NCBI RefSeq assembly: GCF_023161665.1
Contig: NZ_JALNTW010000002.1
Span: 372,001 to 436,000, forward strand
Source of the DNA: Shewanella sp. 1CM18E
GTDB taxonomy: Bacteria > Pseudomonadota > Gammaproteobacteria > Enterobacterales > Shewanellaceae
Direction of reading: 5' to 3'
DNA: 64,000 bases
Position 1 is the first letter of the stretch. Each line of letters starts with the position of its first letter. The position numbers and the translations under genes are program-made. Under the pieces are notes generated by a model. That model was not told the origin of the DNA. It made no database searches and saw only the letters and a list, made by a program, of their open reading frames with translations. Positions 24,882 to 30,280 of this stretch are shown here, piece after piece.

Positions 24882-24976
24882 GTATAACGCCGCGTTAAGC
24901 GGACAAAAATAGTGGGTAAAAATGTGTAGCGAAGCGAAACCGAGCAAACAGTTAGCAGTCCCGCTTTAAATTCTTG
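24882..24976 (-). other. attC site, major part, separated from its other end by the IS
   Basis: GTATAAC at 24882-24888 is the simple-site end. The CCGCGTTAAGCGG region pairs with CCGCTTTAAAT at 24961-24971. Joined to 26182-26187 (the rest of the GTTATGT core) it makes a 101-bp attC, matching the 100-102 bp of most other sites here. This attC belongs to the DUF2695 cassette and marks the distal end of the array. Confidence 0.75.
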
Positions 24977-25029
24977 TATGGATAATAAACCCACCTGATT
25001 TACAAATACTACCCAGTTTCGGGTAATGT

Positions 25030-25169
25030 GAGACCCAGGCTTTAGCTGCAACTAAAGCTTTCCTTGTCGCAGTTCGATTAAATGATGGCTCCTCAGTTGA
25101 GAGACCGATAACAAGAACGAACGCGACAAAGGACTCCAAGCAAAATACTCAAATAGTCTACTGGGTCTC
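25030..25169 (+). ncRNA. Candidate guide RNA (bridge RNA/seekRNA) of the IS110-family element
   Basis: The closing stem GAGACCCAG (25030-25038) / CTGGGTCTC (25161-25169) is a perfect 9-bp match. Inside are a small hairpin TTTAGCTGCAACTAAA (25041-25056) and a second long stem CCTTGTCGCAGTTCG (25062-25076) / CGAACGCGACAAAGG (25118-25132). In its loop, ATAACAAGAA (25108-25117) is identical to the reconstructed attC target across the insertion point. AGAGAC (25100-25105) also occurs at the element's right end. The existence of such guide RNAs in this family is established; this assignment is inferred from the fold and the match. Confidence 0.6.
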
Positions 25170-25202
25170 GAACCCGCATTTGCAAGCAAGAGTTAGCTTA
25201 TT

Positions 25203-26159
25203 ATGAATTCAAAAACTAATCAAAACATTAACGTAGGTGTAGATACTGGCAAGTTTCAGCTGGATATTTATATCCGTCCAATCGGTCATTTTTTTAGCGT
25301 AACTAATGATGATAAAGGGATAAAAGAAGCCGTTAAACAACTGAAAACGTATCAACTCGAACGGATTGTGATTGAAGCGACGGGTCGGTTAGAAATGCCT
25401 TTTATAATGGCCTGCGCTGAATCAAAGTTACCGTTTGTCATCGCTAACCCAATTCATGTTAAACGCTTTGCAGGTGCTATTGGTCAGCGAGCAAAAACAG
25501 ACAAGTTAGATGCTCAACTTATTGCTCATTATGGTGAAGCTATTAAGCCTCCCTTATCAACCTTAAAGCCCGACATAATGCGCTCAATGAGCGATTTAGT
25601 TGCAAGACGTAACCAATTACTAGCCATGCAAACAATGGAGAAAAACCGTCTTCAAATTCTACCTAAAGAACTGGCTATGACAATAAAGCCTGTCTTAACT
25701 GCGTTCAAGATTCAGATTGAAAAGATAGAGGCAAAGATAGTTAAACTCATAGAGTCATGTCCAGACTATCAAGCTAAAAACACCATTCTCCAAAGCATGA
25801 AAGGGATCGGAAAAATAGCCGCAGCTTCTATTATTAGTAATCTACCTGAACTGGGTTATATCAATAGTAAACAGGCTAGCGCCTTGGTAGGCGTTGCCCC
25901 AATGAATAAAGAAAGTGGACGGTTTAAAGGGATGCGAAAAATTCAAGGAGGAAGACATCAAGTTAGAACCGTTTTATACATGGCTATGATGTCTGCAATT
26001 CAATCTAATCCTATTTTTAAAGAAACTTATCAACGATTGGTAGCAGCTGGAAAACCAAAGAAAGTGGCTATAATTGCCTGCGTCAGAAAGATGGTTGTAA
26101 CGTTAAACTCAATGCTAAGAGATGGTGTAATGTGGGAAGCGCCAAAAGCTCAAATTTAG
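25203..26159 (+). CDS. IS110/IS1111-family transposase (DEDD recombinase)
   Basis: A 318-residue protein with an N-terminal RuvC-like DEDD domain: VGVDTGKFQLDI (first Asp), IVIEATGR (Glu), KTDKLDAQLIA (Asp pair). A C-terminal Transposase_20 domain follows, with GIGKIAAASIISNLPELG and VGVAPMNKESGRFKG, the latter carrying the conserved serine. Length is typical. It ends about 22 bp before the element's right boundary, so nearly all noncoding DNA is at the 5' side. It appears intact. Confidence 0.9.
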   Translation: MNSKTNQNINVGVDTGKFQLDIYIRPIGHFFSVTNDDKGIKEAVKQLKTYQLERIVIEATGRLEMPFIMACAESKLPFVIANPIHVKRFAGAIGQRAKTDKLDAQLIAHYGEAIKPPLSTLKPDIMRSMSDLVARRNQLLAMQTMEKNRLQILPKELAMTIKPVLTAFKIQIEKIEAKIVKLIESCPDYQAKNTILQSMKGIGKIAAASIISNLPELGYINSKQASALVGVAPMNKESGRFKGMRKIQGGRHQVRTVLYMAMMSAIQSNPIFKETYQRLVAAGKPKKVAIIACVRKMVVTLNSMLRDGVMWEAPKAQI

Positions 26160-26181
26160 CTATTGACGCCATAGTCTCTTG

Positions 26182-26496
26182 TTATGTGTTTTTAATAATT
26201 TCGCTTTCCCAACTTTCTTCTACGTTTGCCAGCACCTCACAATCGCAACCACCGCCAGAATCAGCAAGCCAAGATAGTATTACTTCTTGGTTCAAATTAC
26301 GTTTAGCTAAATAATTTGATGTTAATTTGGCTGAGTGATCACAACCATGCTCACCTAATTTCACATCTAAGAAATCAAACAAACTTCCGAGTTCTTTAAG
26401 AGAAATTGGCATTTCTGCGATGGCACGTTTAGTATCCTCATCAACGATTGCTTGAACTAAAGCTGCACGTCGTCTTTTTTCTTCCTTAGATGCCAC
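26182..26496 (-). CDS. Cassette protein, DUF2695
   Basis: A 104-residue protein with a charged N-terminus (MASKEEKRRRAALV) and the DUF2695 core CDHSAKLTSNYL and WLADSGGGCDCEVLANVEE. The conserved Cys/His residues may bind metal. Function unknown. It is the last cassette of the array. Its stop codon TAA lies in the ACATAAC core of its own attC, which is interrupted by the IS immediately after. Confidence 0.8.
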   Translation of the reverse strand: MASKEEKRRRAALVQAIVDEDTKRAIAEMPISLKELGSLFDFLDVKLGEHGCDHSAKLTSNYLAKRNLNQEVILSWLADSGGGCDCEVLANVEESWESEIIKNT

Positions 26497-29071: not shown

Positions 29072-29171
29072 ACCTAACGCCTTACTAATGGGCGCATAAA
29101 TGCTTGGCTAAAATTAGCGACGAAGGAGCGCAAGCCAAGCGTTTTGCGTCCTTTTGAGTAACTTGTTAAGT
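29072..29171 (-). other. attC site (100 bp) of the first cassette
   Basis: Bounded by ACCTAAC (29072-29078) and GTTAAGT (29165-29171). The inner arms are AACGCC..TGGGCGC / GCGTCC and TGCTTGGCT / AGCCAAGC. Its core gives the TAA stop of the MreB-like gene. Confidence 0.9.
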
Positions 29172-29657
29172 GGCTGATACTCTTGACTTTACTGTATCAA
29201 AGCTTTCAACGTTAGTGTTGATTTTAGAGCCTAAATATATAACGACTTCACGAGCACCTGCTCCGATTGCTAACTCGCGCAAAACTCTTTCTTCTATATC
29301 AGTCAATCCACCTTCGGTTTTTTCCAATTGGTGAACAATGACGCGAGGGGAAGGTTTTATTTTTGACTTATGAATGGTGTACATACCATGCTGCAATATT
29401 TTTTCGGCACACATAAAATCAGCGACAAATGAACGATTGTGCTTAAAGGGGTTAAGTACTCTAACATTTGGAGCAGAAAGAGATTTAGCTTCCGTTCCGA
29501 TTGCTTTTATCACTTCACCTTTCTTAGTGTTTTCTATAGCAATATAAGGCTCTTCCTCGAAGGACATATTGGAAGAAAAAGCTTTAATAGAAAGTTTGTT
29601 TTCACTTAATTCAAAAAGTAAATCATGTGAAAAAAGGCTTCTTATAAATGTGAACAA
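29166..29657 (-). CDS. Truncated MreB-like protein encoded in the first integron cassette
   Basis: About 163 residues that align by eye with the first ~145 residues of MreB: MFTFIRSLFSHDLLFEL (MreB MFSNDLSIDLG), FVADFMCAEKILQHG (IADFFVTEKMLQH), KPSPRVIVH (RPSPRVLV) and AIGAGAREVVI (AQGAGAREVFL). It stops just before the EEPMAAAIGAG segment and lacks the second half of the actin fold. The phosphate-1 motif DLGT is replaced by ELSE, so nucleotide binding is doubtful. I prefer the TTG start at 29657, nine bases after a perfect AGGAGG; a GTG at 29678 lies in the recombination core. It is the cassette nearest attI. Confidence 0.7.
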   Translation of the reverse strand: MFTFIRSLFSHDLLFELSENKLSIKAFSSNMSFEEEPYIAIENTKKGEVIKAIGTEAKSLSAPNVRVLNPFKHNRSFVADFMCAEKILQHGMYTIHKSKIKPSPRVIVHQLEKTEGGLTDIEERVLRELAIGAGAREVVIYLGSKINTNVESFDTVKSRVSAT

Positions 29658-29676
29658 TACTCTGGGCCTCCTAGCC

Positions 29677-29745
29677 ACTTAACAGTATATTAGGCTGAAT
29701 TCCGAATAAGAACAGACAGCCTAGCGATTTAAATATTAACAGGCT
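29677..29745 (-). other. Putative attI site and attI/cassette junction
   Basis: ACTTAAC at 29677-29683 (minus GTTAAGT) is a core site at the start of the first cassette. It lies about 320 bp from the divergent intI start, where attI is expected. The outer limit of the site is a guess. Confidence 0.5.
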
Positions 29746-29998: not shown

Positions 29999-30280
29999 AT
30001 GCCATCGTCTTTTATTGAATCCATTCGGCAAGTGTTAAGAACTAAACATTACAGTTTGAGAACAGAGAAAAACTATCTGTATTGGGTACGTTATTTCATT
30101 AGATTTCATCAGTATATGCCCCCAAAAGATACGCAAGGCTGTCATATCGAGCAATTTCTTACATTTCTTGGGTGTCTTCATGGTGTCACTGACTTAATTA
30201 ACGCAAACTTCAACTTTTTACTGATTTTAAAACACCTACAATTCCCACAAAATAATAACAATATAATTTTATGTGCATAA
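29999..30280 (+). pseudogene. intI: Truncated integron integrase (intI remnant)
   Basis: The first 58 or so residues match IntI: SSFIESIRQVLRTKHYSLRT, then EKNYLYWVRYFIRFHQ and IEQFLTFLG. After that the frame runs into unrelated residues and stops at 93 codons, whereas IntI is about 320. The catalytic domain with the RHR-Y residues is missing, so the product cannot recombine. The start follows GTGAGGAGCT, a good ribosome binding site, and the LexA box is intact. The rest of the gene appears deleted, not merely frameshifted, since no later IntI motif is visible downstream. Confidence 0.85.

What the first reader, a model, noticed from the sequence alone, without database searches (positions are those of the whole stretch)
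25030..25169. Candidate IS110-family guide RNA carrying a 10-nt copy of the attC target
The noncoding left end of the element forms nested stems (9-bp closing stem, then a ~14-bp inner stem). In the inner loop, ATAACAAGAA at 25108-25117 equals the attC sequence across the reconstructed insertion point (ATAAC core plus AAGAA). That would explain how this IS1111-type element targets attC sites. Established: IS110-family elements use a structured RNA with target- and donor-binding loops. Inferred: this RNA and these loop identities.
Basis: partly seen in the sequence, partly recalled or inferred. Interest (0 to 1): 0.8.

Follow-up and report, generated by a model that had tools for sequence, protein, structure and literature searches.

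The report
Bridge RNA aimed at integron sites
A mobile DNA element in a Shewanella genome sits inside a likely attC, the kind of recombination site that integrons use to swap genes; ahead of its enzyme gene it carries a stretch predicted to make a guide RNA that would lead it to such sites, and across its relatives the predicted guide letters tend to change together with the sites where the elements sit.

Summary
The element (24973-26177) interrupts the outermost attC-like site of a cassette array. It belongs to the IS110 group near IS621, not IS1111: its only solved relatives are IS621 and ISCro4, its noncoding region is upstream, and no 12-bp subterminal repeat was found. The given stretch is the middle of a larger predicted bridge RNA (about 24993-25199); the 32-pair consensus of 78 relatives is 97.5% paired with 195 compensatory cells. 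All four guides can be placed. The missing LTG is 25078-25086. Guides follow targets: LTG 5.20 of 7 matches against 4.13 under genus-stratified shuffling, 0/5000; RTG-RT 86/92; LDG-LD 94/97. Of 87 sites, 50 have an attC R'-type motif upstream, against 6% of random windows. RNA-guided attC targeting is already known for IS1111 elements (ISKpn4, ISPst6). What appears new is an IS621-type lineage with the same target. Transcription and activity are untested.

The parts
24973..26177 (+). IS110-group element, 1205 bp counting one copy of the CT core
   Evidence: Ends placed by comparison of flanks with relatives
25203..26159 (+). DEDD recombinase, 318 aa (PF01548 + PF02371); residues D14, E58, D100, D103, S238 invariant in 12 relatives
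24882..24974 (-). Larger part of the interrupted attC-like site (R' side, L' and L'' arms, LT and core)
   Evidence: Aligns with five attC-like sites of the array; folds no better than shuffles
26178..26186 (-). Remaining end of the same attC-like site (core and R'' side, CTTGTTATG on the + strand)
24966..24972 (+). Left target (LT) TTAAATT
26180..26184 (+). Right target (RT) TGTTA
24975..24979 (+). Right donor (RD) TGTAT
26171..26177 (+). Left donor (LD) ATAGTCT
26163..26168 (+). -35 box TTGACG of the predicted circle-junction promoter
   Evidence: promoter pattern at the rejoined ends in 82 of 91 elements (six duplicate records not removed)
24981..24986 (+). -10 box GATAAT of the same predicted promoter, 17 bp from the -35 box in the circle
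24993..25199 (+). Predicted bridge RNA (ends inferred, not mapped)
25039..25058 (+). Conserved hairpin GCUUUAG...CUAAAGC
   Evidence: 5 of 7 pairs with changes on both sides, 98.4% of cells paired
25064..25129 (+). Target-binding loop, basal stem 25064-25070/25123-25129
   Evidence: 6 of 7 basal pairs with changes on both sides
25078..25086 (+). Left target guide (LTG) UUAAAUGAU, 7 of 9 identical to the target's TTAAATTCT
25109..25115 (+). Right target guide (RTG) UAACAAG, complement of CTTGTTA
25116..25117 (+). Handshake position AA; first base complements donor position 7
   Evidence: 79 of 92; the second base is mostly mismatched
25138..25199 (+). Donor-binding loop
25153..25159 (+). Left donor guide (LDG) AUAGUCU
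   Evidence: Equals LD in 94 of 97, five states
25178..25186 (+). Right donor guide (RDG) AUUUGCAAG, placed by likeness to the IS621 RDG (A157-G165)
   Evidence: no covariation test possible

Best explanation
The noncoding left end of this IS110-group (IS621-type) element is predicted to make a bridge RNA of about 200 nt whose target-binding loop would pair with the two strands of an attC end (LTG with the left bottom strand, RTG UAACAAG with CTTGTTA), likely steering the recombinase to insert at the L''/R'' boundary of attC sites. Shown from sequence: the element interrupts an attC-like site; guides of its relatives covary with their insertion sites; the RNA structure is conserved with compensatory changes; the rejoined ends form a sigma-70-type promoter sequence. 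Inferred: the excised circle transcribes the RNA; the donor-binding loop (LDG, RDG) holds the circle junction; top strands are cut after the CT core and exchanged, handshake bases pairing with the incoming strand as in IS621; and guides have been tuned to the attC types of the hosts.
For: Only PDB relatives at E<=0.001 are IS621 (7e-30) and ISCro4 (6e-29). Consensus structure of 78 relatives: 32 pairs, 12 with changes on both sides, 97.5% of cells paired, 195 compensatory cells against 52 in shuffles. LTG against left target, 86 distinct elements: 5.20 of 7 against 4.13 (sd 0.11) genus-stratified, 0/5000; one element per distinct LTG (38): 5.26 against 3.41, 0/5000; eight 9/9 matches. RTG-RT exact in 86/92, core in 89/92. 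LDG-LD in 94/97, five states. Circle-junction promoter in 82/91. 50 of 87 sites have an R'-type motif upstream against 424 of 7081 random windows.
Against: No transcript or activity data. The reconstructed attC does not fold better than shuffles. Arm-pairing tests for attC were weak: 9 of 87 and 32 of 87 against 14 of 120 controls. 37 of 87 sites lack the R' motif. LTG signal is weak in Vibrio (100/5000), other Vibrionaceae (240/5000), Pseudoalteromonas (453/5000) and Psychromonas (412/5000), and two registers one base apart are needed. The permutations are stratified by genus but not phylogeny-aware; agreement between positions inside the element (LDG-LD, handshake) may be partly inherited. 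Window LTG is 7/9.
Confidence: 0.85

Rival explanations
1. It is an IS1111-attC element like ISKpn4 or ISPst6 using a seekRNA.
For: Same kind of target (PMC11187229). A few IS1111 members have an upstream NCR.
Against: No 12-bp sTIR, best 5 bp; NCR upstream; IS110 guide order; IS621 and ISCro4 as the solved relatives.
Confidence: 0.05
2. The protein or the attC hairpin itself selects the site; the RNA is needed but its loop match is secondary.
For: Many sites are attC-like.
Against: Guides follow sequence, also at sites without the R' motif, such as L051 (LTG CTAACAGCT and RTG UAAUAAG at CTAACAGCTTATTA).
Confidence: 0.06
3. The upstream region is only a leader or regulator of the recombinase gene, with alternative pairings (25030-25038/25161-25169 against the two hairpins) acting as a switch.
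For: Both the closing stem (92.7%) and the donor-loop hairpin (98.1%) are kept and exclude each other.
Against: Does not explain guide-target covariation outside the element. A switch could exist in addition.
Confidence: 0.02
4. The 10-nt match is chance.
For: As a whole 10-mer it holds in only 3 of 80 elements.
Against: The 7-nt part recurs throughout and changes with the target in single CGTTA and TATTA cases; its structural setting is conserved.
Confidence: 0.02

Closest known systems
IS621 and ISCro4 (IS110 group) with bridge RNA in the left end
   Same: Recombinase family, left-end RNA, circle-junction promoter, CT core, 14-base target and donor scheme, LTG-RTG and LDG-RDG order, RDG AUUUGCAAG (IS621 details from PMC11208158 and PMC11208160, passages)
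   Different: Guides match attC ends; an extra conserved hairpin stands before the target-binding loop; the target is often an integron attC
ISKpn4, ISPst6, ISPa25 (IS1111 family) with seekRNA
   Different: IS1111: sTIR, NCR usually downstream, top-strand guide first. Exact insertion position relative to ours was not compared
Class C-attC group II introns
   Same: Mobile elements that invade attC (mentioned in PMC9229058, passages only)
   Different: Retroelements; unrelated mechanism (recalled)

Membership tests
IS110 group (IS621-type) | DEDD recombinase with PF01548 and PF02371 and the catalytic serine | tested here: met
   residues invariant in 12 relatives
IS110 group (IS621-type) | Long noncoding left end with TBL and DBL bridge RNA | tested here: met
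   Predicted from sequence and covariation; RNA itself not seen
IS110 group (IS621-type) | Circle-junction sigma-70 promoter | tested here: met
   Sequence pattern in 82 of 91; activity not tested
IS110 group (IS621-type) | Placement within the IS110 clade of a transposase tree | not tested
   No certified IS1111 outgroup was obtained
IS110 group (IS621-type) | RNA binds the recombinase and directs recombination | not testable with these tools
   -
IS1111 family | Subterminal inverted repeats, usually 11-13 bp | tested here: not met
   No 12-mer pair with 11 or more matches; best perfect pair 5 bp TATGG/CCATA
IS1111 family | Long NCR downstream of tnp (a few exceptions known) | tested here: not met
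   NCR is upstream; about 20 nt follow the stop codon
IS1111 family | Top-strand guide 5' of bottom-strand guide | tested here: not met
   LTG (bottom strand) is 5' of RTG (top strand)
attC site (target) | R and L boxes between cassettes of an array next to an integron integrase | tested here: met
   Aligns with five other sites of the array; IntI N-terminal remnant at 29999-30280
attC site (target) | Folds into a hairpin as a single strand | tested here: inconclusive
   Reconstructed site z -0.02 and +0.57; five intact neighbours z -1.6 to -3.7

The most novel reading that the evidence does not exclude
An IS621-type lineage spread through marine Gammaproteobacteria has, independently of IS1111 elements, made integron attC sites its home by evolving bridge-RNA guides that track the attC types of each host, now and then switching to other sites by guide change: a natural record of bridge-RNA reprogramming in which even the handshake base covaries.
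Probability: 0.6. Interest if true: 0.65.

Novelty: new variant of a known kind. Interest (0 to 1): 0.55.

Why it matters
It points to a second, separate arrival of an RNA-guided element at the same integron site, and gives about 90 natural guide-target pairs for testing the rules of bridge-RNA targeting: register shifts, handshake bases, tolerance on the left side. It also bears on integron stability, since an insertion at the L''/R'' boundary would be expected to disable an attC without breaking a cassette gene.

Tried and rejected
Rfam at gathering threshold: no match in the window. Promoter and terminator scan of the linear element: 3 promoter-like sites against 3.2 in shuffles, 2 terminator-like against 1.3, as expected if the promoter exists only in the circle. 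A strict attC arm test gave 9 of 87 sites at p<=0.05; a looser one 32 of 87 against 14 of 120 control TTGTTA sites. I judged both too weak and then counted an R'-type motif, chosen after seeing those lists; all three are reported. I fetched seven plasmid loci, six of them in the hope of outgroups including an IS1111 member and one (L137) a close Vibrio relative that I did not use further. A 12-mer repeat test on the six found an 11-of-12 pair in one, L133; none could be certified as IS1111, so no tree was built. LDG searches were spoilt by a bad regular expression and redone. Folding the reconstructed attC on either strand gave no signal.

Rows dropped: of 119 loci, 14 had no RNA anchor. Of 106 anchor hits, 20 were left out of the LTG test as duplicates by flank and guide or for lack of a readable left flank. 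8 had no readable right end, and 6 duplicate records were removed; the counts still include such duplicates. Of 81 distinct left ends I gave 78 to the alignment: L108 has an unrelated 5' part; L050 and L110 were left out without good reason. L046 and L075, with a damaged donor loop, were kept. The genome-contig scan kept the best 80 of 289 relatives.

Full report
What is there. The window lies in a genome of the genus Shewanella: a 98%-identical copy in a same-genus genome, G101, has the contig length and coordinates of NZ_BPET01000047.1, Shewanella sp. MBTL60-007. At 25203-26159 is a 318-aa recombinase with PF01548 and PF02371. Its only PDB relatives at E<=0.001 are IS621 (7e-30) and ISCro4 (5.7e-29). 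To its right lie cassette genes on the minus strand separated by attC-like sites, and at 29999-30280 the N-terminal remnant of an integron integrase. A 57-residue piece of that remnant finds no other match in the genome. Relatives at E<=1e-60 occur in 23 of 129 same-genus genomes searched, this one included, and in 19 plasmid records.

Boundaries. Comparing flanks with relatives places the ends at TTAAATT-CT-TGTAT on the left and ATAGTCT-CT-TGTTA on the right. This fits the 14-base scheme of IS621 with the core at positions 8-9 (PMC11208158, passages). Rejoining the flanks gives a site that aligns with five attC-like sites of the array and three elsewhere in the genome; four of the five also end in CTTGTTA. 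It does not fold better than shuffles, whereas the five neighbours have z from -1.6 to -3.7. Rejoining the element ends gives TTGACG, 17 bp, GATAAT; such a promoter pattern is found in 82 of 91 elements. IS621 expresses its RNA from a circle-junction promoter (PMC11208158 and PMC11208160, passages). No 12-bp subterminal repeat was found; the best perfect pair is 5 bp.

The RNA. 78 distinct left ends were aligned. Their consensus has 32 pairs, 12 with changes on both sides. 97.5% of cells pair; 195 cells are compensatory against 52 in shuffles, and slid controls pair at 28-45%. The layout is a conserved hairpin, a target-binding loop (basal stem 25064-25070/25123-25129) and a donor-binding loop up to about 25199. 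It cannot coexist with the donor-loop hairpin 25163-25166/25172-25175 (98.1%, 20 compensatory cells at one pair). Both may be real as alternatives; I have no test between them.

Guides. RTG: 86 of 92 elements carry the exact complement of target positions 10-14, including single CGTTA and TATTA cases, and 89 of 92 match the right-end core. The next base complements donor position 7 in 79 of 92 but target position 7 in 21 of 83, which is what the IS621 handshake predicts; both positions lie inside the element, so clade history may inflate the agreement, and the second handshake base is mostly mismatched. With one element per distinct LTG (38) it is 5.26 against 3.41, 0 of 5000. Shewanella (31) and the mixed group (13) reach 0 of 5000 and Alteromonas (8) 3 of 5000; Vibrio (20) gives 100, other Vibrionaceae (5) 240, Psychromonas (4) 412 and Pseudoalteromonas (5) 453. 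Eight elements match 9 of 9, three of them copies of one Alteromonas gracilis element at different sites; this element matches 7 of 9. Two registers one base apart are both in use. LDG equals the left donor in 94 of 97, in five states. The RDG AUUUGCAAG is placed by likeness to IS621 A157-G165 as described in PMC11208158; two of its letters there are my inference from the pairing.

Targets. Of 87 distinct sites, 50 have an R'-type [TC]AACGC motif 36-135 nt upstream, against 424 of 7081 random windows of the same loci. 37 lack it; some of these look like attC to the eye, others do not, and L009 by my reading of its flank lies in a coding sequence. In the window's genome the pattern TTNARNNNCTTGTTA, which I drew up after seeing the guides, occurs 11 times, 7 of them with an AACGC motif 55-80 nt upstream, four of these in this array; the reversed control pattern occurs 8 times. 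Many Vibrio elements carry UAACAAA guides beside TTTGTTA, and most Shewanella ones carry UAACAAG beside CTTGTTA. That these are the prevailing attC ends of the two genera is inference and recalled knowledge of VCR repeats.

Compared with what is known. RNA guidance of attC-targeting elements was shown for ISKpn4 and ISPst6 of the IS1111 family (PMC11187229; outline, three of nine parts and two sections read). Bridge RNAs of the IS110 group were shown for IS621 (PMC11208160 and PMC11208158, passages). I found no report of an IS110-group, non-IS1111 element guided to attC. Searches: IS1111+attC; seekRNA+IS1111; bridge RNA+IS110+IS1111; IS110+attC+integron+cassette; IS110+superintegron; bridge RNA+integron; bridge RNA+IS110; insertion sequence+attC+target site+superintegron+Vibrio; IS110+attC+Shewanella. 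I saw listings and abstracts for most hits. The library holds open-access papers only; PMC2447020 (Tetu and Holmes 2008) is not held, and ISfinder was not available. A blaGES-5 integron study reports 'IS110' in attC, but names the element ISPa21 of the IS1111 group (PMC11616780, passages). A 2022 survey of Shewanella integrons saw IS110 elements in arrays but detected no IS interrupting attC (PMC9229058, passages).

Verdict. Transcript, binding and activity remain predictions.

Noticed in passing
L037, L038, L039 (genome G046): Three copies at different sites share one disrupted recombinase reading frame and differ from each other at 7 to 18 of 965 positions; perhaps moved in trans by the intact copies of the same genome.
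   Followed up: partly
L002 (G000:C22:229669-229785): A remnant of a second element in the window's genome: 39 residues at 85% identity with one stop, next to a right end preceded by GCTAACAAG.
   Followed up: no
window 29999-30280: Integron integrase reduced to an N-terminal piece (PF13495 at residues 5-57) followed by unrelated sequence; no second match to that piece in the genome. A divergent integrase elsewhere would have been missed.
   Followed up: partly
window 25021-25036 and 25163-25175: Two hairpins (GGGU...ACCC twice) compete with the 9-bp stem 25030-25038/25161-25169; all are conserved, so a switch or loop-loop contact is possible.
   Followed up: partly
L051 (Colwellia MAG): A relative with both guides changed, LTG CTAACAGCT and RTG UAAUAAG, sitting at CTAACAGCTTATTA without the R'-type motif: looks like natural retargeting.
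   Followed up: partly
window 29166-29678: A 170-aa minus-strand gene next to the integrase remnant matches part of MreB/Mbl (PF06723, 2.3e-09).
   Followed up: no
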